From contig NW_026614703.1 in NCBI RefSeq assembly GCF_030052815.1, positions 62,001 to 126,000 of the forward strand: a stretch of 64,000 nt of DNA, given 5' to 3'. A program made the position numbers and the translations under genes. The first letter of the stretch is position 1. Each line of letters starts with the position of its first letter. Below the pieces are notes generated by a model. The model was not told the DNA's origin. It did not search any database and saw only the letters and a list, made by a program, of their open reading frames with translations. Positions 7,107 through 64,000 of this stretch are shown piece after piece. This stretch comes from Hevea brasiliensis (taxonomy: Eukaryota; Streptophyta; Magnoliopsida; Malpighiales; Euphorbiaceae).

Positions 7107-7181
<75 letters not shown>
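7107..7181. repeat. (AT)n microsatellite
   Basis: An uninterrupted AT dinucleotide run of about 75 bp lies between the foldback element and an old LTR fragment. Confidence 0.97.

Positions 7182-12595: not shown

Positions 12596-12598
<3 letters not shown>

Positions 12599-12653
<55 letters not shown>
12599..12653. repeat. (AT)n microsatellite
   Basis: Uninterrupted AT run inside the old LTR. Confidence 0.97.
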
Positions 12654-13846: not shown

Positions 13847-15828
13847 AATTAAGTTGGTATCAAGATGTTGAAATGGGACGTAGTTGCCAAGACTGCAAAG
13901 TATGAAAATAGTAGAGTTAAGTCACATAAAAAATCAAAATTTTGTTATGCAAGTATGGTGAAATTTTGAATACATATTTGATGATTTTAGTAATGATTTA
14001 CTAATTGCAATTTTAGTTTTTTGGTCCCTTCTTATAAGTTTCTGGTATAAGCTAATCTGTCTATGTATGATTAGAGTTGTGTCAGGATATCTCAAGTTAG
14101 TAAATGTCTTTACCAGTTAAGTCAAGAGTAAATAATTTAGAAAGATTCCTTACTTGTGTTGAGGTCTGAATTTGCGTCCATAATGAGTATGAATGGAAAG
14201 GAAAAACAAAAAAAGCAACAGAATGATGAAAGGGTTTGGAACGTAGTAAAGGCTGCCAAATATGAGCTTAGCAGCAAAATTAAATGAAATGAAATTGAAA
14301 GAAAGTGAATGATAATTTTCGACCCTCGGAAAGATTGATGAAAATGAATGTGAAACCCTGTTCAAAATCCAACACTAGGGGGAGTAAAAATTGGAAATAT
14401 GAAAGTTTTATGTGTCAAAGAATTAAAATGCAAGAAAAATTTATGATTGTGTGGTTGCACTAAAGGAGAGCACAGTTGCCCAATATGGGTATAGTTGATG
14501 GTTGAATGTTATACTAGAGCATGTGTTCTAGTTAAATGGTAAGAAGGATTAGAAAGTTGAAGTTCATTGTTAGTGTAATGATGGTGCAATACCCTACCAT
14601 TGTTTGAGCGCTGGTATTATAAGGTGCAAATTACAATGCATACACAAGGCAATTAGGTAGAGCTATTAAGGGCCTGGTTATGCTCTTATGTGAAAGTTAA
14701 AATTTCTAGTAAGAGTTTTAGCTCCTAAGTAGAGAACTAGAAATAATAAAAGGGTAAAAGAAGTAATGTGTACTATACAACTATCCCCAAGTGGAAATAC
14801 CTAATTCTAGAGATTAAATAGTTACACTTTTATAAAGTTTAGATATCAAGTGTGATACAACTAAAAGCAAGAGTGCGAAGTAACTTTTTAGGTAAAGATT
14901 AGGATTGAAAAGATATATTTCAGTTTTTCTTTATAAATAGTAAAATATTTATTCATTTTTAAAATTAAAAATAATTAAATTAAAAATTTTGGCAATAAAA
15001 GTTTAAAAAAATTCTGGCAATAAAATGAAATTTTATCAACTTTCTTTTCAACTCCTCTGTAAATTACAGAAAAAATAAATTGTCTCACTTATTATTTTCT
15101 ACCTTTATTTTCTTTTCCCCTCAAATTTTCTCTCTCTTTTGAATAAGATAAGAACAAAATACTTTTATTTTATTTTTTAATTTTCTTTCCTTCTTTATTT
15201 TTCACCATTCCAAACAAAGGTTCAAAATTTCCATTGAGTTTTGGTGGCTAATTATTTGGATTATAATTTGGTGGTCATGACTTAAATTGAGAACAATAAT
15301 ATTTGACTGATGATTCAATTGGAACAATTTAAAATTTAAAGAAAAACTAGCATTTAATGAAATTTAAATTTTATTTATTGGTTAATTATTAGAAATATAA
15401 CAATTATGAGATTTATTTCCTTAAAAGAACTCCCATAAGTAAATTTTCCTTAAAAATAAAATTTATAATTCATAAGATAGTATTTCACTTAAAAATTTTG
15501 TCTATGCAAATAAATAATAGACAAAATTTTCATACGCAGATATAATAATTTTTTTTAGATTAATTATATAGATATAATCAATTTTTTCAAAAAAATTGAT
15601 CATCGAGTTCCCGCATGGATATTATTTTTATTTTTTTTTTTTAAAGTTAAATATGTGATTTCTCTATACTTAGGTTGAGTGTGATATTTAAGCAAAAATT
15701 CCTAACAATGATAATTTTGAAATTTTAAAAAAATTATAAAAATATTTATATAGAAGAAAAGAGAAAAAATATGAATAATATTAATTAAAATAATAATATT
15801 ATTACTCAATTTATAAAATATAAATAAT

Positions 15829-15832
<4 letters not shown>
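13847..15832 (+). other. Possible internal remnant of the old LTR element
   Basis: Just after the LTR end at 13846 a primer-site-like tggtatcaaga lies at 13855-13865. The following 2 kb are AT-rich, and I could not recognise gag or pol in any frame. A tgcaataccctaccat string near 14584 faintly resembles the LTR start at 8214, so a second LTR remnant may begin there, but the resemblance fades quickly. No other feature is supported. Confidence 0.35.

Positions 15833-15833
<1 letters not shown>

Positions 15834-15890
<57 letters not shown>
15834..15890. repeat. (AT)n microsatellite
   Basis: AT run directly abutting the TRIM-like unit. Confidence 0.95.
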
Positions 15891-15892
<2 letters not shown>

Positions 15893-16213
15893 TTAGCCCG
15901 AAAAGGATATCCTGTCCGGGTAGCGCACCAAATTCCTCATAAGCTCTCAGTCTCCATGGGCCGCGCACGGCCAAGGCCCAAGCCCACCACGACTCCACTT
16001 GCGCAGACTCTGGGTTCGCCAGGCCCACTCTTAGCGCAGAGCTGTTTTTTACGCAGGGGCGAGACTCGAACCCGAGACCCCCGGAACGTTACGAGGCTCT
16101 GATACCACTTAGCCCGAAAAGGATATCCTGTCCGGGTAGCGCACCAAATTCCTCATAAGCTCTCAGTCTCCATGGGCCGCGCACGGCCAAGGCCCAAGCC
16201 CACCACGACTCCA
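15891..16213 (-). mobile_element. TRIM-like element (two 107-bp direct repeats around a 109-bp core)
   Basis: Positions 15891-15997 and 16107-16213 appear identical by eye (107 bp each, GC-rich). The 109-bp core between them carries, next to the high-coordinate repeat, GCTCTGATACCA (16096-16107), the complement of the plant tRNA-Met primer site TGGTATCAGAGC. Short LTRs, a tRNA-Met primer site and a non-coding core are the defining layout of terminal-repeat retrotransposons in miniature. Weak points are that the polypurine tract is not obvious and no TSD is seen: the left side is an (AT)n run and the right side joins the viral insertion. The repeat lacks the 5S-like box of Cassandra. Confidence 0.6.
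16096..16107 (-). promoter_or_regulatory. Primer binding site of the TRIM-like element
   Basis: The minus strand reads TGGTATCAGAGC, complementary to the 3' end of plant initiator tRNA-Met, directly beside the repeat at 16107. Confidence 0.7.
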
Positions 16214-16276
16214 GGAAGTTTGTACTGTTCCATCAGGGTTCCGTCTGAAGGAAGATTCTGTGATCTGGATAGGCTG

Positions 16277-17161
16277 TTAGGTTGAATGAAGCCTTTCGTA
16301 ATTGGTTAACCAATCCTTTGGGATGAGCTGTTCAAGCTCATTTCTAGGCAGTTGCCTAGGTATCTGGACAATTGTTGGGGTGGTCTCAGTATCAGCCAAT
16401 ACAAGCAGAGCATCATTGGAAACAGATGGCTGTGAGAGATCTACAGCATGATCCTGCAATCTGTAGATAATTTGATGGTGTAAGGTGGCCATCATCGAAG
16501 AGGTCACCTGAGCGGCGCCAGTGAGTTGAACCTGAACTTTAAGGGCAGTGCTAAGATGTGGATCTCTTAGCGAGAGATTATAGTTTGGGAAGAATGTCAG
16601 CACCACACTTCCAGCATGTAAGGTGGTGAGGCAGGTTCCTATAACCGCATGTTCATACTGCAAGAACCGTGTATCAAGGAGAGACACTCTGGCTGTAACT
16701 GGAAGCCCTCGTCTCCCATGTAGACTGAGGATAAGTCGAACAGCTCCAAAGTGAAGATGAGAAAACCCTTCTTGTCTCCATCTAGGAATGAGTTGAGGAG
16801 GGATTTCTAAAGTCACATATTGTTCAGCAGATGAACTCTGGAGAGAGCATTGATCCATCCTGGAGGCCTGAACATATTCTTTTGACAAAGATCTTCTAGA
16901 TGAAATGAGAGATCTGATAGATCTGGTTAAAGATCCAGATCGTCTGTAGATGTTGTATGGACTGAGAAGAGGAAGGAGAGATTCTCCAACCTGAACATCT
17001 TCAGGTAAAGTGGATATTTCTACGGGATTATCAATTCTGGAGGATAGTGTTCTTCGAAGTGGTGAAAAGAAAGAAAGAGAAGAGGTGAGGTTAACAATCT
17101 CAGAGGGAGAAGGGGTTTGGATATGAGTTTCAGAAACAGGGTTAGGTGTTTGGCAAGCCAT
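16277..17161 (-). CDS. Caulimovirid movement protein (30K superfamily), endogenous copy
   Basis: This 294-residue open frame starts at an ATG about 190 bases after the primer site. Residues about 115-220 hold the 30K movement-protein core: a YVTLEIP strand, then LLDTRF with the conserved aspartate, then AVIGTCLTTLHAG and FPNYNLSLRD. Such proteins line plasmodesmata and carry virus between plant cells. The N-terminal 110 residues are Ser/Pro/Arg-rich and probably unstructured. The frame stops shortly after the core. In a neighbouring frame the viral sequence continues about 60 bases to the TRIM-like repeat, so the stop may reflect a frameshift in what was once a longer polyprotein. Identification is good; activity today is doubtful. 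Confidence 0.82.
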   Translation of the reverse strand: MACQTPNPVSETHIQTPSPSEIVNLTSSLSFFSPLRRTLSSRIDNPVEISTLPEDVQVGESLLPLLSPYNIYRRSGSLTRSIRSLISSRRSLSKEYVQASRMDQCSLQSSSAEQYVTLEIPPQLIPRWRQEGFSHLHFGAVRLILSLHGRRGLPVTARVSLLDTRFLQYEHAVIGTCLTTLHAGSVVLTFFPNYNLSLRDPHLSTALKVQVQLTGAAQVTSSMMATLHHQIIYRLQDHAVDLSQPSVSNDALLVLADTETTPTIVQIPRQLPRNELEQLIPKDWLTNYERLHST

Positions 17162-17354
17162 ATTTGGTACGTGGCGTTGTGGCCAGAGATCGCTCTACCT
17201 TCTAGGAAGGAATTAAAGCCATCGGTTTCAGTAGATATACCAAGGTAAGAGAAGATGGCAGAAAACAGGGATACAGAGATTAAGAGAAAATACCAGGGTT
17301 GGAAAAGTTCTCCCCTACTCGCCAATGAAGTATGTATAATACAAACATAACCAG

Positions 17355-17366
17355 GCTTTGATACCA
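17355..17366 (-). promoter_or_regulatory. tRNA-Met primer binding site of the endogenous pararetrovirus
   Basis: The minus strand reads TGGTATCAAAGC, one base off the caulimovirid consensus TGGTATCAGAGC. It lies between the promoter region and the movement protein, as expected for the start of minus-strand DNA synthesis and the zero point of the circular genome. Confidence 0.85.
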
Positions 17367-17827
17367 AGATAAGCCGGGAGCCCTTACCACTCATAGAATG
17401 AACTCATGCTGTGCCTCTTCCCTATCCATAGGTACTCTTTGGCTGTGCCCTTTTGTTCATTATACAAGTGATAATGGGACCGTCGCACCTTAATGTCAAA
17501 ACAAAGATATTTCTGATACACAGGATCCTCTTAAAGAGGCAAGTGTAGAGCATACGTATCTCTGATTATAAGAGTATGATACACATTCAAAGATTTTCAG
17601 AGAGAAGGAGAAGAGTTTAGAAAGCCATAGAAGAGAACTTCAGAGAATATTATTGAAAGAAAAACTGAGTCTGAGCACAACTGAAGAGAGCAACTCCTTA
17701 TATAGGCGAGGATGCTCTTAACATTACAGGCAACCGGTTAGAAACTGGCTACCGACACTCTTAAAGCAACATAAAGAAAAGCAAAATAAAGACAGATACA
17801 TCATTACATTATTGACTGTCAAACTTT
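17367..17827 (-). promoter_or_regulatory. Intergenic promoter/leader region of the pararetrovirus
   Basis: This non-coding stretch separates the end of the pol-side reading region from the primer site. It holds the TATA box at 17697-17705, followed downstream by a pyrimidine-rich leader. No as-1-type element is evident upstream of the TATA box. Confidence 0.65.
17697..17705 (-). promoter_or_regulatory. Viral TATA box
   Basis: The minus strand reads CTATATAAG in a GC-richer context, about 330 bases upstream of the primer site. This matches the pregenomic-RNA promoter position of caulimovirids. Confidence 0.7.
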
Positions 17828-18700
17828 TTAACTTTTATCATGGAGTGGCAGACAGATTAAGGGTGTCAAAGTCAGAGTCATCAGAGTCGATTCCAAAAAA
17901 GTCCTTTGGCCACTGTCGGTGTACAGGAGATGGTGGGTCAGCACTCTGAATGGCATCTCGTGACTCTGTGTCCATCGAATCCTGGGAATCTTACCACATG
18001 GGATGGGTCCAGTCAATGGGCTCATCAGTGAGAGACTGGATGGGACCAAGTGATGTACAATTCACATGGGGAGGCACCAGACAATAATAGATGTTGATTT
18101 CACAGAGGTACTCAGCTAGTTGCTTTCTCAAGGGTCCCATGGCATCTTTGTCAATAATTGACCCCTCATAAGTCCTCCACTCATATTCAGTATTCTGGGT
18201 CCAGAGGAGTCCATCAGGCCTTCTAGAGAAAGGCCTGTGAAAAATGAACAAGGTTCTGATGTTGAAAGCGGAATGGGCCATCTTCTATTCCATGGGTGTC
18301 TATGATGCGTTTCAGGCTGTAGCGCCATGCCGAAATGGGCTTGAACCATTCTAGAAACCTGGACAGGAGAGTCCTGTTAGTATTGTTCATAACATACCGT
18401 CTGAGGCCATGAGCGGAATTCCATTCTATGGAATAGAGTGTAACCATGCACCGGAGGAGCCATAGTTCTTCTAGGATGAGTTCTCTGCAAAGTTGGATAT
18501 CAAACAGAGGAAAGGGTTGTCGTGATAAAGACAATGAGGAGGAGTAATCCCCTTAGGGTGTTTCTTGCACTCGTAGTGAAACAGATGATCTCTTGCGAAC
18601 TTAGCCATCTTTGTGATAGGCTAGTTGGGTGAGCATCCAGAGGAAAACTGCAGGTAGGAACCAGGAAATTGTGCATTGGAGAAGGAGTATGTGGAGAGGA
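17828..18700 (-). pseudogene. Unrecognised pararetrovirus reading region downstream of pol
   Basis: Three overlapping minus-strand open stretches (18223-18534, 17991-18281, 17828-18049) in different frames give protein-like text with many aromatic residues (for example WFKPISAW, RPDGLLWTQN, DWTHPMW). They look like one former gene split by frameshifts. Its place between RNase H and the promoter corresponds to the second ORF of florendoviruses or the transactivator position of caulimoviruses. I cannot match it to either, so function is left open. Confidence 0.5.
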
Positions 18701-18759
18701 AGAGGATGATGCCATAAGGATCAAAAGAAGTGTGGAGAAAGACTGAATCAGGTGGAGGT

Positions 18760-19069
18760 TTTTGGGCTTGGATAGGAGGTCAGGAACCAAGTTGTGTTTT
18801 CCTTTGATATGCTGAACTGAGAATTTATACTTGGCGAACCAGTCCTTAAGCCTCAGTAATTGCGGTTCAGGAAGAGACTTGTTTTTGAAGTCTAGAACCT
18901 TTGGGAAGGATGAGCTGTCCATAACCACAGTGAAGTGGTGGCCAATCAGATGAAATTCGAATCTCTTTATCCCATTTTTGACAGCTAATATCTCTTTATA
19001 GACTGAATGATAATGTTTCTGAGGTTCTGGGAACTCTCCACTAGCATGTCCACATATATGCTTTTCTCC
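18760..19069 (-). pseudogene. Pararetrovirus RNase H domain
   Basis: In the same frame as the RT but separated from it by an in-frame TAA at about 19067-19069. It retains a strand with VVMDSSSF near 18910 and the terminal block HIKGKHNLVPDLLSK, the typical end of retroelement RNase H. It would degrade RNA in RNA:DNA hybrids during replication. Confidence 0.75.
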
Positions 19070-19786
19070 TTAAATTTCTTCGATGAGGACTGCACCCCAG
19101 TGGGTGTCACTAGCATCAGTCTGAAGGATGCGGTGTCCAATACTGGGAATCTGTAGTGGTGGCGGGTTTAAAGCCACTTCTTTTAATTTTTGATCGCATA
19201 TGTCCTGTTCTTCCCTCCATGGTGGGGAATCCTTTTTAAGCATCTTTGACAGCTGGCAAGTGTGGGCGGCCACATGCGGGATAAACTTCCTGATGTAATT
19301 GATAATACCAAGGAACTGTTGTATTTGTTTTACTGTCAAGTCCTTATCAGGAAACTTCAGTAATTCTTCTGCAATGTGAGGTCCCGGTTGGTATTTTCCA
19401 TCCTTGAATCTCATTCCAAGGAAGTCGATATCAGTTTGGGCCAGTGAGCTCTTCTTTTCTGATAGCATAATTCCATAGGAATCCACCAATTGTTGGAATG
19501 TGGAGAGGAGTGCCCTATGGGTTGTAACATCTTTGGAGAAAAGAAGGATATCGTCTATATAAATAAGAGCACTATGCAGTATGGGCTCGAATATCCTTGT
19601 CATGGCCTTTTGGAAAACTGATGGGGCCGTCTTAAGGCCGAATGGAAGGACTGTCCATTGGTATTGGGCCGTAGGAATGCAGAAGGCAGTCTTGGGCCTA
19701 TCAGAGGGATTAATACCCAATTGCCAAAAACTGGCTTTAAGGTCAAACTTGGAGAAAATATGGGCTTCGTGTAGTTGAGTGAACAA
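19070..19786 (-). pseudogene. Pararetrovirus reverse transcriptase
   Basis: A 238-residue open stretch shows consecutive RT motifs: FSKFDLKASFWQLGI (motif A, catalytic D), VLPFGLKTAPSVFQ (motif B), YIDDILLFS (motif C with both aspartates), LGMRF (motif E-like), and then the connection QQFLGIINYIRKFIP. The 3' end runs into TDASDTHWGAVL, the first RNase H strand. The RT core itself is unbroken, but its N-terminal part (about 19790-19940) is in another frame and the C-terminal side meets a stop. This is therefore a fragment of a once larger polyprotein. Confidence 0.88.
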
Positions 19787-19935
19787 GGCTTCAGGCTTTG
19801 GTAATGGGAACTTGTTATCTTGGAGGAAATGATTCAGAGGCTTGTAATCTATGACAAGCCTTTTCTTCCCTTTTAGTCGTTCCGATCTTTTTTCAACATA
19901 AAAGGCCTGGCAGGCCCATTGGGAGGAAGTGGGTT

Positions 19936-20532
19936 CTATGAGGCCTTGTTGGAGAAGTCGTCAGACTCTTCTTGGGCTAAAGCCAAGTCTGTAGGATTCA
20001 TTCCCGGGTGTGATGCCTTTGTCGGATTGATATCTTCATTGAGTTTGAATGGAAGACTGACAAAGAATTCCGGGTTTTTCCATAGGGGATGGTGATGGTA
20101 AAAATGTGCATGGGAGTCAGCACAGGACCTTAAAAGGAGCTCCTTGTGCTCTTGGAATTCAGCTGAGGCATCAGCCAGAGAATATAACCTTGGGACAAAA
20201 GTAAATGGCTGAAAATTTCTCTTATATTTCAATCCTATGGGGAGGATCTTCAAATGCTTCGCCTGTTGATACAAGTCAAAGCCTATCAGCAAATCTTTGT
20301 CAGGAAGATCCGACCCGATGACCTTAGTCCAAAGGATACAAGTGGGGAAGAACTGGATTCCAATTGGGTGCTTAGTGATAAGGCTATTTTTGAAAACATT
20401 TCCATCTGCAGCCTTAAAGTATTCTTCATGAGGGACCCAGTATTCTGAGGGTAAGATGGCTGGGTTCATCATACTTTTGTGAGCCTCGATATCCAGGAAG
20501 CCAATGACACTAATGGGCCGTTCATACTTCAT
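19936..20532 (-). pseudogene. Pararetrovirus protease and RT N-terminal linker
   Basis: This 198-residue open stretch starts at an ATG that overlaps the preceding stop as ATGA (20532-20529). The retropepsin active site, normally D-T/S-G, reads FLDIEAHKSM, so both the hydroxyl residue and the glycine are lost. The flap-side block LLIGFDLYQQ is still present. Residues 140-190 (HPLWKNPEFFVSLPFK, then NPTKASHPGM) are the linker entering the RT of the petuvirus/florendovirus group. The frame ends at a shift near 19940, just before the RT fingers. Confidence 0.75.
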
Positions 20533-20906
20533 CGAAGAATATGAATCGGGACTAAAGGAATTGGAATAGTGTCTGGGCCATAAGTGGGTTGGGAAGATTG
20601 GATATGTTGGGCCAGGTAAGACGGGTAATGGGCTTCAGTATCCGAACTGGATTCTTCTGAAGTGATTGAGTAATCTTCTTCTGTTCCAGTGTCCATTCCA
20701 AGGGCAAAGACTGTATCTTCATCGGGCTCATCCTGTTCAGAGAACAAGGATTCGACATCATCATGCTCCAGGGAGATGTGAGAAGCCTGTTGTATGTGTT
20801 GTAATAGCTTAACTGCCTTATTGGGGTTCTTAGGGCAGTTCTTGGCATAGTGGCCTCGGTTGCCACAGATATAGCATCTGTCAGACTTCTTTGTACCCGT
20901 CCTTTT
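20529..20906 (-). pseudogene. Coat-protein zinc knuckle and acidic tail
   Basis: Downstream of a stop at 20907-20909 the coat/gag frame continues with a CCHC zinc knuckle (C-x2-C-x4-H-x4-C, 20835-20876), an RNA-binding module. It is followed by an acidic Glu/Asp/Ser-rich tail (EDYSITSEESSSD). It ends at TGA overlapping the protease start. Confidence 0.78.
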
Positions 20907-20909
20907 CTT

Positions 20910-21770
20910 TCAGAAGTATCTTACGGACCTTCTTCCTTTCTTTTGCTTGAAAGGGGGTTTGAATCTAGAGGGATGCTTCTTGTAATGTGCTTTCTTCTTT
21001 GGTTTGCATTCACAGTTCTTTTCCTTGCATTTAATGGCAAGGTGAGACTTCTGGCATACATTCTTCAAAGCTTTGCTGTTGTCAATGATATCTTTGAACA
21101 ACTTCTGTTGTTCACACATTTTGTCAAGACAGGCCAGAGTCATTTGATGAATTTCCCCTATAGTGATAGCATTCATTGCTCTTCTGGTAGCAGCAATACT
21201 TCTGTGGAGTTCTGGTTGTAATGCTTTTGGCAATGAGGCAATGTAGGTATGCCTGAGGTTGACATCATTATATCCAGTAAGCAGATAATAGCGTTGAGTC
21301 ATGCGCTGGTAGTGTCTCTCAATGTCTGATCTTTTTAAAGAACAGCAGCGCATATCAAAGAACTCTTGTCTTAACTGCTTGCTGTATAAAGATGCATCTC
21401 CGAGAAACTCAGCAAAGAGAGCGTTGATTGCTTGTAAGGGAGTCAGGTGGCAAAATTGGGCTTTCTGATATTCTCCAATGGAGGAGAACCAATCTTGTAA
21501 TGTGCCAACAGTTCGAGAGATGAATTCTCTGAGTATAGTGTGGGAGTCAGCACATTCCCGGAGCATTTGAACATCAAGCCAAGCTTTAAATTCTGCAAGG
21601 CGATCTCTCCACCTTGATGGGGAAACATCATCTAAGGTGAACCATGGGCCTGAACTGGGCCTGGGCTGTTGTGGAGCGCCTGGTAGTCCAAAGTCTAGAA
21701 TTGGTTCATCATCTGGGATTTCAACATGAGGGTCTTGGGGAGGTCCTGTAGGGCCTGTAGTAAATTAGTA
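20910..21770 (-). pseudogene. Pararetrovirus coat protein (gag-like) core
   Basis: The open part (20910-21566) contains the capsid core (FFDMRCCSLKRSDIERHYQR, then a GYNDVNLRHTYIASLP-type block) and a lysine/cysteine-rich end that precedes the zinc knuckle. Coding text continues upstream in pieces to about 21770 (DEPILDFGLPGAPQQPRP), where the AT-rich flank begins. The N-terminus and its connection to the movement protein are absent. Confidence 0.75.
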
Positions 21771-22680
21771 AAAAATTTTAATTTACCATCTTTTACATAA
21801 TAATTATTGAAAAGATCTCCACTCACATTTGTAAGAAATCACTCAATTATTTTTTAAATTAATTTCTCTTCTGTTTCCTAATTAATAAATAAAATTTCAC
21901 CTATTTTAAATAAAAAACTTCTCGACTAATTCTAAGTTGATTTCTTTTTCTTTCTTAATTAGAAAATTTCTCAACAATTCGTAACAGATTTCCTTTATTA
22001 ATAAATTTTATAAGTAGATGAGATTATATTATAAAAAAATATCTTATTTAATTTTTAAATTATTTTTTTTTACTTATATTAATGGAAAAAATTGATTTCC
22101 TGTATGCATAAGATTTATTATATATTATAATGGATCTAAAATTAATTTAAAATTTTAATCCTTCATTCTTAAAAGAAAATAAAACGTTATGCTTTATTTT
22201 ATTATCTATTTTACATTTCACATAATCATTGATAATATCATTTTCTTTTCTTCTTTATAATTTAGAATATACTATATTTAGTTAATATAAAAATAGGTCA
22301 TAAAAGTAAAATATTAAGTAATTAATTAAAAATAAAAAACATATTTTTAAATATGTTAATATGTATATAATAGAATAATTAAAATTAAATATAAAAAATA
22401 AATTATTAATTATGATACAAAGAATAAAAATTTAAATATATATATATAAAATACAATTTGACAAAATAAAATTCAAAAATATTATTTAATTTTATAATTT
22501 ATTGTTACTTTTGCTAAATATAAAATTTAAAGTTTATTCATTAAAATTATTTAGAGAATAAATTTAATTAATGTATATAAATTAACTTTAAAATATATTT
22601 AAATACATGTAAAATATAATTAAAAAAATTATATACACACACGCAGCAATCGAGTAGCTTTGAATAGCAATTAAAATAGG

Positions 22681-28804: not shown

Positions 28805-30902
28805 TGTTAGTAGTATGCCCTAAAGCATATCATTTAGTATGTATCTTGTACATATTTTTAATAATAAAAGGCATTTCCACTTTTCCGTTTACATAATATA
28901 TTTATGTGTAATAGAAAAGGTCCATTGATATTTTGTTAGAAATATTATTCTTAAGTTGTTAAGAATATGAGTGACAATATTTCTAGCACAAAGTATCATA
29001 AATAGGTTCACAATCGAGGATACTTCATAATAAGGACATGACTTATCCAGAAAGATTGTATTCATGTTTGTTCCCAAGTTATTTATATGAGATATAAATA
29101 AGATGGAATGGTGAGTCTCATGCCATATAACAAACTTGATAGGCACTTATAAATGATAAGTAGGCCGAACCAGTGACACTTATGACAAGCACATGGAGTT
29201 TACTCTTGTCAATGTTTTGTCATAAATCATATCAGTGCATATAATCTTTAGACCGAGATAGCAGATTATCTTGTATATAGGTAGTTTGAGTTTGATATCG
29301 CTTTCATACTTGTACTATGTATAGGTATATGGGCATGTGTTGGCTCTGCTAGTTATATATGGAGGTAGGTGTTGATCAAGAAGGAATCTGTTCCTCTAAG
29401 TAAATAGAGATAAAATCCTATGTTCATTTAATTGTTCTTGATGTTTCAAGTTCTGGCAGACAGATAGATTTATTCGTAAAATAGTTTCGATGAGAAAAAT
29501 CTTTTAATTAAGAACTGGAATTAAAAGAGAACATAATATTCATAGCAAATGGAGTTTGACATAAACCATGACTCTAGCTTGAGTTGGGATTTTGTAATGA
29601 GAGATTCTAGTGCATGGTAACATATGATTATAGGTTCATTTAAGGTAAATCTTATTACTAATTGGGTGGCCATGGCATGCTATGCTAGGTGTTAACCATG
29701 GTCTATGAGGTTCATAAAATGATTTAGAGAAATCATTTATGGTAAGAAAGAGTTCTGATGATATTAAGAGTTGATATCATGTCTCATTGCCAATTAGTGA
29801 TGAGCCTAGTAAGTCACACACATACACAAGTTATCACCTATTTAAATATGATTTAATTAATTAATTAAAGAGTTTAATTGATTAATTAAATAGGTTTGGT
29901 TTGCAATTAAATTGCAAAGTCCCTAGCATGACTTGAAACCAAATCTAGATTATTGGATGTGTAGTCTAAATTAAAATTATACTTAAAGTGTTTAAATATG
30001 AATTTAATTGATGAGAAATTAATTAATAGAGATTAATTAATTAATTTATATTTGTTATAAATTAATTAGAAGAAGAAAATAATTATTTTGGGTTAAGAAC
30101 TCAAAATTAAGACACAGGGGCATTTTGGTCATTTCATAGTGTGACACGTAGCACCATGAGATGGTGACACATGGCATAACACATAAGCTTGCCAAATGTT
30201 TTTTAATCATATAAGATGATTAAAATCAAGATTAAATATAGGTTTGACACTTGGCACAATGTGATTGGGTCACTTAAACCTAGAGCTAATCAAAAGGTGA
30301 CATGTGGCTAGGGTTTAATGTGTTAACCTAGCTATTTAAGTGTGGTTATGAAAAGAAAATATAACCAGCAGCCTCCTCTCTCAATTTTCACGCCACTTTG
30401 AGCCTCTCCAGCTATTTCTCTTCATCTCTCATCAATTCAAAGAGATTAGCCATCAATCTCTTGAATTAAGAACACTAGAAATTGTTTCTAGTGTCCTGTT
30501 TACATCTTTAATCTCTTAAAAGGTAGAACTTGATTTTCTAATTAATAGAAAAAGCTTTAGAAGCTATTCAAGGGCTGCCATAGGTGTTCTTGGTGTGGAC
30601 AAGCTAGAGGGACAACATCTGGTGTCCTGAAGACGAATCTCAAAGGCGCAGACACTGCAAAGACATCAAGAGGTTAGTGTAATCGTTCTTGATTTAATCT
30701 AGGGTTCTAAAATTAATCTGATTAATTTTAAAATCTTAAATGGCAAATACAGATCCAAAAACATATTAAAAGAGTTTTAATATGTTGTTTATCATTGAAA
30801 TCAAATAGATAAAAATAAATCTTGCATGGTGCATGTGACCCTAGGTGAAAATTTTTGAATTCAATGGTATAATCTTGTGTTTTTCACGCTTCCGTTCCTT
30901 CA
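28805..30902 (+). repeat. Copia 5' LTR
   Basis: Starts TGTTAG, ends CTTCA, and is paired with 36679-38782. Confidence 0.95.
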
Positions 30903-30904
30903 AT

Positions 30905-30916
30905 TGGTATCAGAGC
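30905..30916 (+). promoter_or_regulatory. Copia primer binding site
   Basis: TGGTATCAGAGC, complementary to plant initiator tRNA-Met, begins two bases after the 5' LTR. Confidence 0.93.
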
Positions 30917-31162
30917 CACTATATTTGCCATTTAGATTGTTGATTATATAATTTAATTGTGTGTTTGATCATGAGATCAAGAGCTTCATTGCTGGTTGGA
31001 TCATGAGGTGTGGCGTCACACATGGTGAAGCCACCATTGGTGGCGGCAACAATGGTTCCTTGGGTGGTTCAAGGTTTGGCTTTTAATTCTGCAATTGTTG
31101 TATGGTCTAAGGCCTATTTTTTGACTAATTAAAGTGTTTAATTAGTTGTTTTAATCACACAA

Positions 31163-31510
31163 TTAAATTATGATTCAAATCAGATTTTTAAAAATTGTTT
31201 GAATGTGATTCAAATCTGAATTTTAAAAGTTGTTTGAATGTGATTCAAATCTGAATTTTTAAAATTGTTTGAACCATATTTAAATCTGATTTTTTAAAAT
31301 TGATTCAATAAAATTCATATCTGATTTTTTTAAAAATATTTGAATGTGATTCAAATCTGTTTTTTTAAAAAAATGTTTGAATGTGATTCAAATCTGAATT
31401 TTTGAAGTTGTTTGAATGTGATTCAAATCTGAATTTTTAAATTTGTTTGAATGAGATTCAAATCTGAATTTTTAAATTTATTTGAATCATATTCAAATCT
31501 GGATTTTTAA
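31163..31510 (+). repeat. 35-bp hairpin-bearing tandem array in the Copia leader
   Basis: About nine to ten units with a period of 35-37 bp. Units start near 31198, 31233, 31268, 31303, 31339, 31376, 31411, 31446 and 31481, with a degenerate one before. The best-kept units contain TTTGAATGTGATTCAAA, a perfect 7-bp inverted repeat around a GTG loop, followed by TCTGAATTTTT. It lies in the untranslated leader between the primer site and gag. Confidence 0.85.
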
Positions 31511-32271
31511 GTTGAATATGAGATATTTAATTTAATTTAAGTATGTATGTTTTATTTAATTGTTAAATAGTAATATGCATGATGGATGATCATGGACTAT
31601 AAAAGACCAATGTGATTGGATTTATTTCTTTTATGTTTCTTTGGGATTGTAAATTAATTAATTTATTTTAATTTATTTTGGGCATGTATTATTAAGTTTG
31701 TAATATTTTTGGGTTGTAATTTCATTTATTTAAGTTCTTGTAAATTCGCCTTGGTATGCCAAGGATTACTATGTAATATTGGATTGCAAGAAGTTCAAGA
31801 AGGTCAAGAGCATTGGTGGGACCAGTGGGAGGAATTCAATATCAAGTGTTGATTATGTACTCCTTCAGCAACTCTTGTAAAATGAATGAATGAAATGCAC
31901 CTAGGAATGCCCTGATTCAATTCTTGGTGGCTCGATTGAATCCCTTAGAAAGTCCATGATCATACCATATTTCGCTTATCCATGAATGCATGAGATGTAT
32001 GGGAATGTATGCAATTATATGATATATGCATGCTAAATGGATAATGTGCAAAGTGAGACCTTAATAGTAATTAGGATGGCTATAAAATCTTCCAAACAAA
32101 TGATTAAGTTGGAAATGGTATAATTAAAGTAATTATAACATAAGCCCTCCATTGGGGCAATTATTTTAAGAAATTTTAAAATAGTTGCATGAGATGCAAT
32201 TAATTTAAGAGATTTTCTTAAGAATAATTGTTAAGCATGAGATGTTGTAAATATGTAAATGGTTTGGTGGC

Positions 32272-32485
32272 CAATATTGGATGTACCTGAGGACATTAAA
32301 ATTATTTGCATAATTACTGGCTCAATGGGATCAACTTAACTAATGCAAGATAAGTCAATAATGGATGTACCTGAGATTTTGAGTATTAGGGGCTAGGTAA
32401 AGGATTGAACCTCACATGAGATGTGATGGGCAAGGAGTTGCTCACTTATAGTTTATTGTAATTCCAATAATGGATGTACCTGAGG
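32272..32485 (+). repeat. Three spaced copies of a leader motif
   Basis: The string tggatgtacctgag, preceded by caata or caatat, occurs at about 32272, 32355 and 32463 in the Copia leader, 80-110 bases apart, shortly before gag. Confidence 0.7.
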
Positions 32486-32686
32486 ATGATCAATAGAATT
32501 ATAAGAATTCAATCACCCACTAGAAATCCATCCAACTAGGATTTTCGTTTTCTACTTTGGAAGTATAGGATTCGCTAAGTTAGTGGGAGGACCAATTTGA
32601 TTAAAAGACCATAATCATTTTGGTTAATTACATGATACATTTACTAATTAATCTGGTTATTTTTTGCAGTTAATTTTCTGATAAAA

Positions 32687-33490
32687 ATGAGCACAAAACA
32701 ACCACCACCATATATTCTTGCAAAGATACTTAATCGCAATAGGTTGACAGGACCTAATCTCTATGATTGGCTAAAAAATTTGAAACTTGTCCTGAACCTT
32801 GAACATATAGGATATGTTCTAGACTCAAATGTTCCTGGTCCCTTACCTCCAGAGGCCACACAAGAGGAACATGAAACTTTGGATAAGTGGAAGGAGCATA
32901 ATATGAGAGCTAAGTGTTACATGCTTGCTTCCATGAGTAATGAGTTACAGAAGCAGCATGGAAACATACAGAGTGCAAGAGAGATCCTCCTTCACCTACA
33001 AGAGTTGTATGGTGAGCACAGCAGAAATGCTAGGTATGAGATATCTAGGCAGCTATTCCGCATGAGGATGTCTGAGGGACAGAATGTTGGAGATCATGTC
33101 TACAAGATGATTCGGCTGATTGAGCAGTTGGAACATCTTGACTTCCACATGCATTTCCAACTACTAACGGATTTGATCCTTCAGTCCCTTCCTGAGTCTT
33201 TTGGGAAATTTGTGACAAATTTTCATATGACTAAACAGGAATGCACCTTAGCTGAATTACTCAACATGCTGGTTATTGCCCAAAAGAATATGCCAGGCAA
33301 TAAAGGAAAAGAGGTAGCTTTGGTTGCATCTTCTTCTGCTGGAAAGTCCAACAAGAAGAAGGGCAATAAGAAAAAGAAACCTCAGATTCCTGGTCCTTCC
33401 AAGAAAATAGCTAAACAAAAAGGGAAGACTAAAGCTGATGAAAGGCAAAGGAAAGTGTTTCCACTGCCAAAAGGATGGGCACTGGAATAG
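32687..33490 (+). pseudogene. Copia gag
   Basis: An ATG-started frame of 267 residues carries the Copia gag core: YDWLKNLKLVLNLEHIGYVL, then KCYMLASMSNELQ, REILLHLQELYG and the ISRQLFRMRMSEG block. A lysine-rich tail follows. The frame slips by one base near 33440, so the CCHC zinc knuckle (33456-33497, C-x2-C-x4-H-x4-C) is in the next frame. Gag would form the particle that packages element RNA. The start codon is chosen because the core motif follows after about 25 residues, as in related elements. Confidence 0.9.
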
Positions 33491-33497
33491 GAACTGC

Positions 33498-34590
33498 CCA
33501 GAGTATCTTGCTTCTCTGAAGGACAAGAAGGATACACCTTCGGAAGGTATGTCCATATCTTGTTATTTAGATTCTGATGATACTCATAGTTCATCTACTT
33601 GGGTTTTAAATCATCGTGCGCTTCACATTTCTAATGATATGCAGAACTAGCAAACAATGGCGACTTGCGTTATCAAGATATTAGAGTCCGGATTGGCAAT
33701 GGCTCAATCATGAAGCTTTAGCCATAGGATCTAAATCTTTTTACATGTTTGGACATGTTTTGTGTTTGGATAATATTTTATATGTACCTGATGCTTTTAA
33801 GAACATCATTTCTATATCTAGTTTGACTAGAAATGGCTAAGAATTTCAGTTCACAGATGATGTTTGCAATATTTATTTTGGAAATAAATATGTTGGTTCG
33901 GGTTATATGAATGATGGTCTTTATTATTTGGATAATAATAATGAACACAAATTGAATGCAAGTGATCTAAAAGAATACAATGCCATGGTGAAAACCAACT
34001 CAAGTTCAAAATATATTTGGCACTTAAGGTTATGTCATGTTGTAGAAGATAGGATTGCAAAATTGGAGAAAATGGGGATTCTATCCTCATTGGGCTCTGA
34101 GCCTACTCCAACTTGTGAATCTTGCCTTCAAGGCAAAATGACTAGATCACCATTTGTTGGACAAGGGCTAAGAGCTGAAAATATTTTGGAACTAATACAT
34201 AGTGATGTATGTGGTCCGTTTAAAGAAATGGTTAGAGGGGGCTTTCATTATTTTATTACCTTTACTGATAATAAATCAAGGTTTGGGTATTTGTATTTGA
34301 TGAAATACAAGCATGAATCCTTTGAAAAGTTCAAAGAATTTAAATCTGAAGTAGAAAATCAAACAGGAAAAAATATTGAAGCTCTTCGATCAGATCGTGG
34401 AGGTGAATATTTGAGTACTGAATTTGATGAATACTTGAGAGAGCATGGCATTGTTTCTCAGCTGACTCCTCCAGGAACGCCACAGCTGAATGGTGTATCT
34501 GAAAGGAGAAATCGTACCCTATTGGATATGGTACATAATATGATGAGCTACACTGATATGCCAATCTCTTTTTTTGGGGATTTGCATTAG
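33498..34590 (+). pseudogene. Copia protease remnant, GAG-pre-integrase and integrase
   Basis: After the zinc knuckle the protease region (about 33540-33850) is reduced and crossed by several stops; SSSTWVLNHRALHISNDM is recognisable but DSG/DTG is lost. From 33907 a 227-residue open stretch gives the zinc-binding HLRLCH...CESC module, then the integrase core with HSDVCGPF, FTDNKSRFG, LRSDRGGEY and LNGVSERRNR. This keeps the D, D and E of the catalytic triad. The frame breaks at 34590 (a one-base slip), and the C-terminal integrase part continues in another frame to about 34943. Confidence 0.88.
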
Positions 34591-34943
34591 AATCAGCTTT
34601 ATATATTCTGAATAGGATTCCATCAAAATCAGTTTCTTCCACACCTTATGAGATATGGCATGGAAGAAAACCAAGTCTTAAGCATGTTAAGATTTGAGGT
34701 TGTCCAGTTTATATCAAAAAGCTGAACACTGATAAATTGGAGACCAGATCAGAAAGAGGTCGATTTGTTGGATATCCAAAAGATAGTTTTGGATATTATT
34801 TTTATTTGCCTACTTCACAAAAGGTTGTGATAAGTAGAGATGCCACATTTCTTGAACAACAGTTTGTTCAAGAAGGAGGCAAAGGAAGGCAAATAGAGTT
34901 AGAATTGGAGAATTCTGACCAACCAATGCATCGATGGATATAG
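34591..34943 (+). pseudogene. Copia integrase C-terminal region
   Basis: The segment 34737-34943 reads ETRSERGRFVGYPKDSFGYY, the usual block between integrase and RT in Copia polyproteins. It is separated by a frame change and an internal stop (near 34694) from the integrase core, and by another slip from the RT. Confidence 0.8.
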
Positions 34944-35869
34944 ATCCATCTAGTCAACCTATACCCATTGATGAAACATCTAAAGTCGTTCTTCGTAGAA
35001 CAACTGTGGTATCTCACCCACCGGTGAGATATGGTTTTCTTCATGAAGAAGAACAAGAGTTGTCTACTCATGAAGAAGTAGATCATGGAGATGATCCACT
35101 TACCTATGAAGAAGCTATATCAGATATAGACTCTTCAAAATGGATTGATGCTATGAAATCCGAGATTGATTCCATGTATAAGAATCAAGTTTGGGATCTT
35201 GTTGACCCACCTGAAGGTATTGTACCTATAGGGAACAAATGGGTTTTCAAGAAGAAAATTGGTTCTGATGGAAAGGTAGAGACCTATAAGGCAAGGCTAG
35301 TAGCGAAAGGGTTTCGCCAAAGGCAAGGAATAGACTATGAGGAGACTTTCTCGCCTGTTGCCATACTTAAATCAATTAGGATTTTATTAGCAATAGCTGC
35401 ATACTATGATTATGAGATTTGGCAGATGGATGTCAAAACAGCTTTTCTCAATGGATACATTGAAGAAAACATTTTCATGGAACAACCTAGGGGATTTGAA
35501 TCTCAAGATGGTTCCAAGGTATGCAAGCTAAAGCGATCCATTTATGGGTTGAAACAAGCTTCGAGGAGTTGGAACATCCGTTTTGATGAAGCCATTAAAT
35601 CTTTTGCTTTTATCAAAAATGAGGATGAGCCATGTGTATATAAGAAGGTTAGTGACAGTGCTATCACTTTCCTTGTCTTATATGTGGATGACATACTATT
35701 GATGGGTAATGATACATGTATGTTGACGACTATAAAGGTATGGTTGTCAAATACATTCTCCATGAAAGACTTAGGGGAGGCAACCTATATTCTTGGGATT
35801 CACATCTATAGAGATAGAGCGAAAAGAATAATTGGTTTATCCAAAGTCTATACTTGGAAAAGGTGTTAA
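34934..35869 (+). pseudogene. Copia reverse transcriptase
   Basis: A 311-residue open stretch carries the Copia RT (RVT_2). It includes WVFKKKIGSDGKVETYKARL, VAKGFRQRQGIDYEETFSPV, WQMDVKTAFLNGYI (motif A, catalytic D), KLKRSIYGLKQASRSWN and VLYVDDILLMG (YVDD with both aspartates). All key residues are present. The frame ends in a shift at about 35850, just before the RNase H connection. Confidence 0.93.
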
Positions 35870-36492
35870 AGAGGTTTAACATGCTTGATTCCAAGAGAGG
35901 ATTGTTACCAGTGAGACATGGTATCCACCTTTCTAAAGAGATGTCTCCAAAGACACCTGAAGAAAGAGATAAGATGGCCAAGATTCCATATGCTTCGGCT
36001 ATTGGAAGTTTAATGTATGCAATGTTGTGTACTAGGCCGGACATCGCATATGCTGTTAGTTTGACTAGCAGGTATCAATCCAATCCAGGTTTGGAACACT
36101 GGATAGCTGTTAAGAATATCCTTAAGTACTTGAGAAGAACTAAGGATTTATTCTTGATTTATGGAGGTGGAGACTTGCAATTGGATGGTTATACTGATTC
36201 TGATTTCCAATCAGATATCGATGATAGAAAGTCTACCTCTGGATATGTGTTCATTTGTAATGGAGGTGCACTCAGTTGGAAGAGTTCCAAACAGAGCACG
36301 ACTGCAGATTCCACTACGAGGTCGAGTATATTGCCGCATCGATGTCGCAAAGAAGTTGTTTGGATAAAGAAGTTCGTAACAGAACTTACAATAGTTCCTT
36401 CCATTGAGTCAGCAGTTCCACTACATTGTGACAACAATGGGCAATCATACAAGCTAAGGAACCAAGGTCTCACAAAAAATCCAAACACATAG
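35854..36492 (+). pseudogene. Copia RNase H
   Basis: The 212-residue stretch starts in the RT connection (LKRFNMLDSKRG), shows ASAIGSLMYAMLCTRPDIAY and then the RNase H domain with GYTDSDFQSDIDDRKSTSGY. The block that normally supplies catalytic Glu in EAEYIA is out of frame (near 36318), and the later strand (CDNNG) is again in frame. The end is lost after NPNT by another slip, and the remaining tail sits in other frames to about 36600. Confidence 0.88.
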
Positions 36493-36662
36493 AAAGGCAC
36501 TATCACATTATCAGAGATATAGTTGGGCAAGGCGATATAGTCATGCAGAAAAATAACATCAGCTGGAAAATTCAGCTGATCCATTCACTAAGCCTTTTTC
36601 ATAAGCTCAGTTAGACTGACATCTTGAGAAGATAGGTCTAAGGTATTGTAATGAATGGCTCT

Positions 36663-36678
36663 AGTGCTAGTGGGAGAT
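36663..36678 (+). promoter_or_regulatory. Copia polypurine tract
   Basis: A purine-rich stretch (agtgctagtgggagat) directly precedes the 3' LTR, the position required for plus-strand priming. Confidence 0.75.
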
Positions 36679-38782
36679 TGTTAGTAGTATGCCCTAGAGC
36701 ATATCATTTAGTATGTATCTTGTACATATTTTTAATAATAAAAGGCATTTCCACTTTTCCGTTTACATAATATATTTATGTGTAATAGAAAAGGTCCATT
36801 GATATTTTGTTAGAAATATTATTCTTAAGTTGTTAAGAATATGAGTGACAATATTTCTAGCACAAAGTATCATAAATAGGTTCACAATCGAGGATACTTC
36901 ATAATAAGGACATGACTTATCCAGAAAGATTGTATTCATGTTTGTTCCCAAGTTATTTATATGAGATATAAATAAGATGGAATGGTGAGTCTCATGCCAT
37001 ATAACAAACTTGATAGGCACTTATAAATGATAAGTAGGCCGAACCAGTGACACTTATGATAAGCACATGGAGTTTACTCTTGTCAATGTTTTGTCATAAA
37101 TCATATCAGTTCATATAATTTTTAGACCTGAGATAGCACAGTTATCTTGTATATAGGTAGTTTGAGTTTGATAATGCTTTCATACTTGTACTATGTATGG
37201 GTATATGGGCATGTGTTGGCTCCTGCTAGTTATATATGGAGGTAGGTGTTGATCAAGAAGGAATCTGTTCCTCTAAGTAAATAGAGATAAAATCCTATGT
37301 TCATTTAATTGTTCTTGATGTTTCAAGTTCTGGCAGAGACAGATAGATTTATTCAGAAAAGAGTTTCTGATGAGAAAAATCTTTTAATCAAGAACTGGAA
37401 TTAAAAGAGAACATAATATTCATAGCAAATGGAGTTTGACATAAACCATGACTCCAGCTTGAGTTGGGATTTTGTAACAGAGAGATTCTAGTGCATGGTA
37501 ACATATGATTATAGGTTCATTTAAGGTAAATCTTATTACTAATTGGGTGGCCATGGCATGCTATGCTAGGTGTTAACCATAGTCTATGAGGTTCATAAAA
37601 TGATTTAGAGAAATCATTTATGGTAAGAAAGAGTTCTGATGATATTAAGAGTTGATATCATGTCTCATTGCCAATTAGTGATGAGCCTAGTAAGTCACAC
37701 ACATACACAAGTTATCACCTATTTAAATATGATTTAATTAATTAATTAAAGAGTTTAATTGATTAATTAAATAGGTTTGGTTTGTAATTAAATTGCAAAG
37801 TCCCTAGCATGACTTGAAACCAAATCTAGATTATTGGATATGTAGTCTAAATTAAATTTATACTTAAAGTGTTTAAATATGAATTTAATTGATGAGAAAT
37901 TAATTAATAGAGATTAATTAATTAATTTATATTTGATATAAATTAATTAGAAGAAGAAAATAATTATTTTGGGTTAAGAACTCAAAATTAACACACAGGG
38001 GCATTTTGATCATTTCATAGTGTGACACGTGGCACCATGAGATGGTGACACATGGCATAACACATAAGCTTGTCAAATATTTTTTAATAATGTAAGATGA
38101 TTAAAATCAAGATTAAATATAGGTTTGACACTTGGCACAATGTGATTGGGTCACTTAAACCTAGAGCTAATCAAAAGGTGACATGTGGCTAGGGTTTAAT
38201 GTGTTAACCTAGCTATTTAAGTGTGGTTATGAAAAGAAAATATAACCAGCAGCCTCCTCTCTCAATTGTCACGCCACTTTGAGCCTCTCCAGCTATTTCT
38301 CTTCATCTCTCATCAATTCAAAGAGATTAGCCATCAATCTCTTGAATTAAGAACACTAGAAATTGTTTCTAGTGTCCTGTTTACATCTTTAATCTCTTAA
38401 AAGGTAGAACTTGATTTTCTAATTAATAGAAAAAGCTTTAGAAGCTATTCAAGGGCTGCCATAGGTGTTCTTGGTGTGGACAAGCTAGAGGGACAACATC
38501 TGGTGTCCTGAAGACGAATCTCAAAGCGCAGACACGCCTGAGACATCAAGAGGTTAGTGTAATCGTTCTTGATTTAATCTAGGGTTCTAAAATTAATCTG
38601 ATTAATTTTAAAATCTTAAATGGCAAATACAGATCCAAAAACATATTAAAAGAGTTTTAATATGTTGTTTATCATTGAAATCAAATAGATAAAAATAAAT
38701 CTTGCATGGTGCATGTGACCCTAGGTGAAAATTTTTGAATTCAATGGTATAATCTTGTGTTTTTCACGCTTCCGTTCCTTCA
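36679..38782 (+). repeat. Copia 3' LTR
   Basis: Pairs with 28805-30902, with small differences such as gccctagagc against gccctaaagc. Confidence 0.95.
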
Positions 38783-49199: not shown

Positions 49200-50470
49200 T
49201 TCTTGCCATCTCAAACTTCTTCCATCAATTTCTGATACTTTTCATCATTTTGTGCTACCGTTTTAATCTAATCAGTTAGCAATGGCTTCACTTGCCAAGT
49301 AGCTATCATCTGTCCCTCATCATCTATCTCTAGATTAGCATGCAGTGCCCTCAACTCATATACCATAGACAAAGGAGAAACCTTTAAACTAGCCATAGTC
49401 TTGTGACTTAAGGCATCAGATACTACATTTGCTTTCCCTGGCTGATAATCTATTAAACAGTCATATTCTTTGATCAGTTCTAGCCATCTCCTCTATTTCA
49501 AATTCAACTCCTTTTGTGTGCCCAGATATTTCAAGCTCTTGTGATCTGTGTAAATATAACATTTCTCCCCATACAAATAGTGTCTTTAGATCTTCAGAGC
49601 AAATACAATGGTAGCAAGCTCCAAGTCATGTGTAGGGTAGTTCCTCTCATGTGGTTTCAACTGAAGTGATGCATAAGCAATGACATTTTGGTCTTGCATC
49701 AATACACAACCTAGCCCATTGTGAGAAGCATCGCTATAGATGGTATATTCCTTACCTAGAGTAGGTAAAGTCAGGACTGGAGCTTCAGTCAAACATTTTT
49801 TAACTCACCAAAGCTTTGCTAGCATTTATCAGTCTACTAAAATTTTACTTCTTTCCGAAGTAGCTTGGTCAGTGGAGATACTAACATAGAAAACCTCTTT
49901 ACAAAACGGCGGTAGTAACCAGCTAAGCACAGAAAACTGCAAACTTTTGTGACATTTCTGGGTGGCTTCCAATTAAGGATAGCTTCTACCTTGCTAGGAT
50001 CTACCTTAATGCCTTCAGCTAACACAATATGCCCCAAGAATGCAATTTTCTTTAGCCAAAATTCACACTTTGATAGCTTGGCATACAGCTATTTCTCCTT
50101 TAAGGTTTGTAGCACAATCCTCAGGTGCCTATCATGCTCTTCTTCACTCTTCAAATACACCAAAATATCGTCAATGAATACCACAATAAACTAATCTAAA
50201 TATAGCCTGAAGATAGTGTTCATCAGGTCCATAAAAGTAGCTGGAGCATTGCTTAACCCGAATGGCATAACCAGAAACTCATAAATGCCATATCGAGTTC
50301 TAAAAGCAATTTTTGGAATACTCTGCTCTTGTACCCTCAACTGATAATAACCTGATCTCAAGTCAATTTTAGAGAACACAGCTGCACCCTTCAACTGATC
50401 AAACAAGTCATCTATGTGACGTAATGGATATCTAATTTTTATGGTCACCTTGTTCAACTATATATAGTCA
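49200..50470 (-). pseudogene. Family B reverse transcriptase and RNase H
   Basis: RT motifs appear in order: [16 protein letters not shown] (motif A), [18 protein letters not shown] (motif B), then after a stop the FIDDIL box (near 50165) in the same frame. 49837-50037 gives [12 protein letters not shown] and GYYRRFVK, and the RNase H starts at 49586-49792 with [16 protein letters not shown]. At least four stops or frameshifts interrupt it. The overall order and spacing are those of plant Tekay pol. Confidence 0.88.
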
Positions 50471-60359: not shown

Positions 60360-60535
60360 ACCTGGTATCAATCTCTGAATAGTTGTGGGTGCTGTTTTCT
60401 CATGTCCTCCTCTCGTTCCCAAGTAGCCTCCTGACCCGAATGATGGTTCCACAGTACTTTTACCAACGGTATCTACTTGTTTCATAACTGCTTTAACTCA
60501 TAGTCAGAATCTCTATGGGTTCTTCCTCATATGTG
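60360..60535 (-). pseudogene. Family A chromodomain end, frameshifted
   Basis: The integrase frame runs through LTYEEEPIEIL and then leaves register (ending TMS). The chromodomain text (VKVLWNHHSG-like, then the EEDMR block) continues in another frame, with an additional TGA where the related element has an arginine codon. Confidence 0.75.
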
Positions 60536-63780: not shown

Positions 63781-64000
63781 GGTATATACTCTGACTGGTG
63801 CGCCACTGGATACTGGCTGGTTAACAGTGCTTTGACTCCCATTAGTGTTACCAGGACCCCTACCTCTGCCTCTACCTCTACCAGCTGGCTGTGATCCTCT
63901 AGGTGCAGAGACTTGGGCTGATCCTTTTGATGTAGCAGAAGGTCCAGACTAGTGTGAACTAGTACAATCGTTAGCGAAATGTCCACTCCCTCCACAGTTA
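63781..64000 (-). pseudogene. Family A gag, C-terminal end
   Basis: In the protease frame, an Arg/Gly-rich tail (AGRGRGRGRG) follows a CCHC knuckle (NCGGSGHFANDC) at the window edge. A stop occurs near 63950. The rest of gag is outside the window. Confidence 0.82.

What the first reader, a model, noticed from the sequence alone, without database searches (positions are those of the whole stretch)
16214..21770. Circularly permuted endogenous pararetrovirus
Read on the minus strand, coat protein comes first and movement protein last, with promoter, TATA box and tRNA-Met primer site in between. A linearised circular genome opened between movement and coat protein explains this. The missing junction (roughly 1.5-2 kb by comparison with usual genome sizes) fixes the break point. 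RT motifs look Petuvirus/Florendovirus-like, but the movement protein stands alone in its frame, so the genus is open.
Basis: partly seen in the sequence, partly recalled or inferred. Interest (0 to 1): 0.75.

Follow-up and report, generated by a model that had tools for sequence, protein, structure and literature searches.

The report
Decayed pararetrovirus fused to miniature retrotransposon
This is the dead remains of a plant DNA virus built into what is probably a rubber-tree chromosome, an ordinary kind of fossil except that one of its two broken ends meets the end of a tiny retrotransposon, which may hint at how such viruses get stuck in plant genomes.

Summary
On the minus strand, 16214 to about 21761, lie coat protein with zinc knuckle, protease, RT, RNase H, a TATA box, a tRNA-Met primer site and movement protein (MP): the circular caulimovirid order, opened in the MP-CP linker. 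MP is 97-98% identical to three Hevea brasiliensis gene models, so the host is probably rubber tree. RT lies outside Ty3 (100/99), with caulimovirids, probably Petuvirus; genus references were not at hand.

Corrections. (1) MP does not stand alone: four Hevea relatives read on where this copy has a stop. (2) The missing piece is linker, at least 446 codons (1.34 kb). (3) 'Permuted' is only a convention for a circle. (4) The left break is not virus to host: viral frame runs to 16214 and meets, base to base, a 323-bp TRIM-like element (two identical 107-bp repeats, tRNA-Met site, no target-site duplication), which abuts (TA)29.

Fragmented caulimovirids beside (TA)n and LTR elements are well documented, so this is a new member of a known kind. 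The exact virus/TRIM/(TA)n joint suggests co-capture of retrotransposon cDNA and viral DNA at one break, or later TRIM recombination. I could not separate these: the genome search did not complete.

The parts
15834..15891 (.). (TA)29 microsatellite at the outer edge of the TRIM-like element
   Evidence: last base shared with the 107-bp repeat
15891..16213 (-). TRIM-like element, 323 bp, 107-bp direct repeats at 16107-16213 and 15891-15997 (0 of 107 differences)
   Evidence: 59.4% GC; no 4-6 bp duplication found at its ends
16095..16107 (-). exact TGGTATCAGAGCC (tRNA-Met primer site) of the TRIM-like element, overlapping the inner edge of its first repeat by one base
16214..16276 (-). start of the MP-CP linker; viral frame runs to 16214 and stops at the TRIM-like element
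   Evidence: tblastn of four Hevea proteins; identity ends at 16214, printed alignments end one residue later at 16211
16277..17161 (-). movement protein, interrupted by a stop at 16277-16279 where Hevea relatives read on
17354..17366 (-). tRNA-Met primer site of the virus, 12 of 13
17697..17704 (-). TATA box TATATAAG
17838..18552 (-). decayed tail after RNase H, in several short frames
   Evidence: no homologue tested
18500..19069 (-). RNase H region, same frame as RT behind an in-frame stop at 19070-19072
19070..19960 (-). reverse transcriptase, open for 296 codons
19936..20634 (-). protease region in another frame than CP and RT; catalytic motif degraded
20529..20909 (-). zinc knuckle end of the coat protein
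20910..21761 (-). coat protein and last part of the MP-CP linker; in-frame stop at 20910-20912; viral similarity ends about 21761

Best explanation
A non-functional endogenous caulimovirid, most likely of the Petuvirus clade, in a Hevea genome. Shown: domain order, decay, and the two viral ends. Inferred: viral DNA opened in the MP-CP linker, with at least 1.34 kb of linker missing, was joined passively (the virus has no integrase) into a break at a (TA)n tract, as described for other caulimovirids. The left viral end is joined directly to an apparently complete TRIM-like element whose other end meets (TA)29 with no target-site duplication. For this joint my first choice (about 0.35, level with later TRIM recombination at 0.35; 0.15 for a pre-existing TRIM, 0.15 for assembly error) is that linear TRIM cDNA and viral DNA were ligated together into one break. 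The confidence below is for the virus and its passive integration, not for the TRIM step.
For: Domains; order and ends; RT with caulimovirids and outside Ty3 at 100/99; CaMV RT closer (E 1.2e-62) than Ty3 RT (E 3.3e-46); tRNA-Met site and TATA in the right place; seven Hevea gene models of the same family; (TA)29 and exact TRIM-like unit with no duplication; (TA)n bias and capture models in print (PMC4241990 section 9; PMC10377300 section 12).
Against: No reference petuvirus or florendovirus sequence was in the tree. The right border (about 21761) has no TA repeat next to it. The host genome could not be searched, so neither the empty site nor other TRIM copies were seen. None of the names shown for the 120 listed RT relatives is Hevea.
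Confidence: 0.85

Rival explanations
1. The virus integrated first; the TRIM-like element then inserted into the viral linker, and ectopic recombination with another copy standing beside a (TA)n tract removed the rest of the virus and the target-site duplication.
For: The viral frame meets the TG end of the repeat exactly, as integrase-made insertions do; the duplication is missing, as recombination between copies would leave it.
Against: Needs a second copy beside a (TA)n tract; none was seen in the window and the genome could not be searched. Only 3.4% of the window lies within 330 bp of a (TA)10+ tract.
Confidence: 0.35
2. The TRIM-like element stood beside the (TA)n tract before, and viral DNA was joined to its outer end during repair of a break.
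For: Caulimovirid junctions often adjoin LTRs (tomato, PMC1899175, passages).
Against: A break exactly at the end of the repeat is a coincidence; no duplication is left.
Confidence: 0.15
3. The virus/TRIM/(TA)n joint is an assembly error at repeated sequence.
For: TRIM copies and long TA tracts are places where assemblies misjoin (general knowledge); coverage is unknown.
Against: No direct evidence of a misjoin was found.
Confidence: 0.15
4. It is a Ty3/gypsy (Metaviridae) element.
For: Ty3 RT matches at E 3.3e-46.
Against: CaMV RT matches better; tree split 100/99; MP domain; no LTRs of its own; the Ty3 elements of this window match the viral relatives P0001 and P0002 at only 28-32%.
Confidence: 0.01

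Closest known systems
Petuvirus and petuvirus-like endogenous viruses (petunia vein clearing virus; Aristotelia chilensis virus 1; citrus EPRVs)
   Same: Order MP-CP-PR-RT-RH on a circle, tRNA-Met primer site before MP, genome of about 7 kb (7,205-7,206 bp and 7,122 bp reported, PMC4411674, passages; here at least 6.9 kb by lengths).
   Different: Decayed, lacks most of the MP-CP linker; not compared with labelled sequences.
Florendovirus (endogenous)
   Same: Single-polyprotein plan and frequent (TA)n flanks (PMC4241990, section 9 and passages).
   Different: A 2026 survey puts it on another branch than Petuvirus (PMC13308828, passages); not tested here with sequences.
Tomato EPRVs with LTR junctions (LycEPRV)
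   Same: Truncated viral DNA whose junctions mostly adjoin retrotransposon LTRs (PMC1899175, passages).
   Different: There mainly Ty3-gypsy LTR pieces; here an apparently whole TRIM-like unit met at its exact end.
SMART and other TRIMs
   Same: Very short LTR-type unit with primer site (SMART: 292 bp, 85-bp repeats, PMC3281118, passages).
   Different: No 5-bp duplication here, no clear polypurine tract, no TG...CA pair; one copy seen.

Membership tests
Caulimoviridae (endogenous) | RT outside Ty3/Metaviridae and with caulimovirids | tested here: met
   35-row tree, 100/99; one CaMV row and two Ty3 rows as references
Caulimoviridae (endogenous) | 30K-type movement protein | tested here: met
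   PF01107 E 2.2e-13
Caulimoviridae (endogenous) | tRNA-Met primer site in the non-coding region | tested here: met
   12 of 13 at 17366
Caulimoviridae (endogenous) | no LTRs and no integrase | tested here: met
   no repeat brackets the element; no integrase among Pfam hits of the pieces scanned; not every short frame was scanned
Petuvirus | RT grouping with petunia vein clearing virus | not tested
Petuvirus | MP to RH in one polyprotein | tested here: inconclusive
   Hevea P0161 (MP and linker), Citrus P0170 (MP and CP) and Sesamum P0002 (PR, RT, RH) each hold adjacent parts in one frame; no full frame seen
Petuvirus | genome of about 7.2 kb | tested here: inconclusive
   at least 6.9 kb by lengths
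Florendovirus | RT grouping with florendoviruses | not tested
   no labelled reference sequence available
TRIM (miniature LTR retrotransposon) | two terminal direct repeats, short, primer site next to the first | tested here: met
TRIM (miniature LTR retrotransposon) | target-site duplication | tested here: not met
   no 4-6 bp match at the two ends; hence called TRIM-like
TRIM (miniature LTR retrotransposon) | at least two copies with different duplications | not tested
   one copy in the window; genome search unanswered

The most novel reading that the evidence does not exclude
The locus is a snapshot of joint capture: reverse-transcribed linear TRIM cDNA with intact ends and pararetroviral DNA were ligated together into one break at a (TA)n tract, without integrase, so that retrotransposon cDNA and caulimovirid DNA share one repair route into plant chromosomes.
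Probability: 0.3. Interest if true: 0.6.

Novelty: new member of a known kind. Interest (0 to 1): 0.4.

Why it matters
How caulimovirids, which have no integrase, enter plant chromosomes is described as speculative, with two main hypotheses: break repair at (TA)n, or the retrotransposon machinery (PMC10377300 section 12). A junction where (TA)n, an LTR-type end and viral coding sequence touch bears on both and can be tested in related Hevea genomes. The fossil also documents a petuvirus-like lineage in what is probably Hevea; two searches listed no paper on it by title and abstract (1 paper, 4 papers; open-licence library only).

Tried and rejected
Metaviridae: rejected by the tree. LTRs of the virus: none; the 107-bp repeats lie on one side only. 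Other viral pieces in the window: three viral slices hit only themselves by blastn; tblastn of 15 chosen proteins hit the locus and two Ty3 stretches. RNA families in 15500-22000: one match, E 0.2 and far below its cut-off, over the TA tract; no tRNA called in the window. Viral contigs: three scans, 2, 73 and 56 pattern matches, none confirmed. Helenus-type TRIM with a tRNA-like LTR (PMC10886601, abstract and passages): the GGTTCGAGTC box-B-like stretch here lies in the internal part, not in the repeat, so not filed there. Structure models were of middling confidence (pLDDT 67.1 and 68.3) and were used as support only. In the structural second look at MP the 50 entries shown are viral capsids and two BcsB entries, no solved movement protein among them; a sequence search of solved structures with MP found nothing at E up to 1. 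Coat protein: only weak, implausible Pfam hits.

Full report
What is there. On the minus strand, from about 21761 down to 16214, the window holds in order: the end of a linker and a coat protein (20913-21761), its zinc knuckle (20532-20909), a protease region (19939-20634), reverse transcriptase (19073-19960), RNase H (18503-19069), a decayed tail (17838-18552), a TATA box (17704), a tRNA-Met primer site (17366) and a movement protein (16280-17161). RVT_1 E 2.1e-27, MP E 2.2e-13, RNase H E 3.3e-10, zinc knuckle E 4.3e-6. The coat-protein piece has only implausible Pfam hits but matches six proteins, three of them Hevea. On a circle this order is the usual caulimovirid one (established knowledge). 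The break is in the linker between MP and CP, so 'circularly permuted' says only where the circle was opened.

Host. Of 220 MP relatives 120 are listed, and four of those bear the name Hevea brasiliensis: P0121 (97% over 66% of the query), P0144 (98% over 54%), P0240 (98% over 38%) and P0161 (77% over 66%, its alignment spanning a gap). Three of the six CP relatives are Hevea. These seven gene models lie on records of five different lengths, 59 to 116 Mb, so the family is multi-copy. Of the 438 RT relatives 120 are listed; none of the names shown is Hevea, and many rows have no name. The window is therefore probably Hevea or a close relative; this is inferred, since its genome could not be searched.

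Which virus. CaMV RT (E 1.2e-62) is closer than Ty3 RT (E 3.3e-46). In a 35-row tree (window RT, 31 relatives chosen from the 120 listed, none of the 31 dropped, CaMV, Ty3 and a Ty3 element of this same window) the Ty3 pair splits off with 100/99; the window RT lies in a 13-row set (97/95) whose named rows are angiosperms; a Ginkgo row and one unnamed row stand outside the 30-row set (98/99). The root is at the midpoint, for drawing only. A 2026 survey places Petuvirus beside a group that includes Ginkgoaceae, and Florendovirus on another branch (PMC13308828, passages), which favours Petuvirus; but the same survey names other Ginkgo lineages too, and no labelled petuvirus or florendovirus sequence was at hand, so this is inference. 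The best BFVD matches are ORF1 of a 'Caulimovirus sp.' (MP, 40% identity) and an unnamed viral protein (RT, 68%); a second unnamed protein has 45%, and Rose yellow vein virus, a Vaccinivirus, Banana streak OL virus and Soybean chlorotic mottle virus have 34-40%.

Decay. In-frame stops interrupt MP-linker (16277-16279), RT-RNase H (19070-19072) and CP-zinc knuckle (20910-20912); the protease lies in another frame than CP and RT, and its catalytic motif is degraded. RT itself is open for 296 codons. The copy is non-functional.

MP does not stand alone. Hevea P0121, P0144, P0161 and P0240 read on where this copy stops, for 141 to 269 residues beyond the last shared motif (the ends of some of these models look frame-shifted by eye). 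Similarity of the window to them continues past the stop to 16214. A Citrus protein, P0170, carries MP and CP in one frame. So the separate MP frame is a lesion, not a genus character.

The missing piece. P0161 continues 269 residues beyond the last viral residue here, and P0246 shows 177 residues before the first one on the CP side, so at least 446 codons (1,338 nt) are absent; an unknown stretch between the two is not counted. P0246 is a predicted gene model that joins distant parts of the viral frame, so the figure is approximate. With 5,548 bp present the genome was at least 6.9 kb, near the 7,205-7,206 bp reported for petunia vein clearing virus (PMC4411674, passages).

The left junction. 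The viral frame runs to 16214. The next base is the first of a 107-bp repeat (16107-16213) that recurs at 15891-15997 with 0 of 107 differences. An exact TGGTATCAGAGCC starts on the last base of the first repeat. The unit is 323 bp and 59.4% GC, against 43.7% in the virus and 25.7% and 16.9% in the 2-kb flanks. It looks like a TRIM (compare SMART, PMC3281118, passages; TRIM criteria, PMC4717578, passages), but no polypurine tract is evident and no 4-6 bp duplication was found, so I call it TRIM-like. Its far end meets (TA)29 (15834-15891). With one reference frame and one element copy, the joint is exact to about one base.

How it may have formed. In print: florendovirus loci are frequently flanked by (TA)n that was there before insertion in the rice cases inspected, 14-51% of loci by species (PMC4241990 section 9); capture as filler DNA and the retrotransposon machinery are the two main hypotheses (PMC10377300 section 12); [quoted passage not shown] joint integration with retrotransposons by template switching has been suggested (PMC8256270, passages). 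An apparently complete retrotransposon with no duplication, virus on one side and (TA)n on the other, fits ligation of linear cDNA together with viral DNA into one break. It fits equally an insertion into the virus followed by recombination with another copy. Only 3.4% of the window lies within 330 bp of a (TA)10+ tract, which mildly favours models that explain the tract; the right border, however, has no TA repeat beside it. I give co-capture about 0.35, later recombination 0.35, a pre-existing TRIM 0.15 and assembly error 0.15; the novel case as worded, with a shared repair route, 0.3.

Verdict. The virus is an ordinary endogenous caulimovirid; the junction is the part worth a second look. 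Searches for Hevea with endogenous pararetrovirus or Caulimoviridae listed 1 and 4 papers, none on this by title and abstract (listings only, in a library that lacks most subscription papers). A search for TRIM with pararetrovirus terms found 13 papers and listed 10; by the term counts shown only one of the ten, a sugar-beet repeat reference paper (PMC11603912), holds both kinds of term. So I cannot say that such a junction is undescribed.

Noticed in passing
28805-38782: Copia-type LTR element on the + strand with 2.1-kb LTRs 98.1% identical, exact tRNA-Met primer site two bases after the first LTR and gag/integrase/RT-like frames at 32648-36492 (domains judged by eye).
   Followed up: partly
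49849-50490 and 60493-63948: Ty3/gypsy-type coding pieces on the minus strand, part of diverged repeated units.
   Followed up: partly
15998-16106: Internal part of the TRIM-like element holds a GGTTCGAGTC stretch like a pol III B box after the primer site; no tRNA was called.
   Followed up: no
window matches of P0241, P0242, P0246 (20682-21761, 17072-17161): Pieces of this viral family are carried in public databases as Hevea host genes ('uncharacterized protein', 'extensin-like').
   Followed up: no
7108-7179 and 12598-12653: Two further long (TA)n tracts in the window, with no viral similarity next to them.
   Followed up: partly
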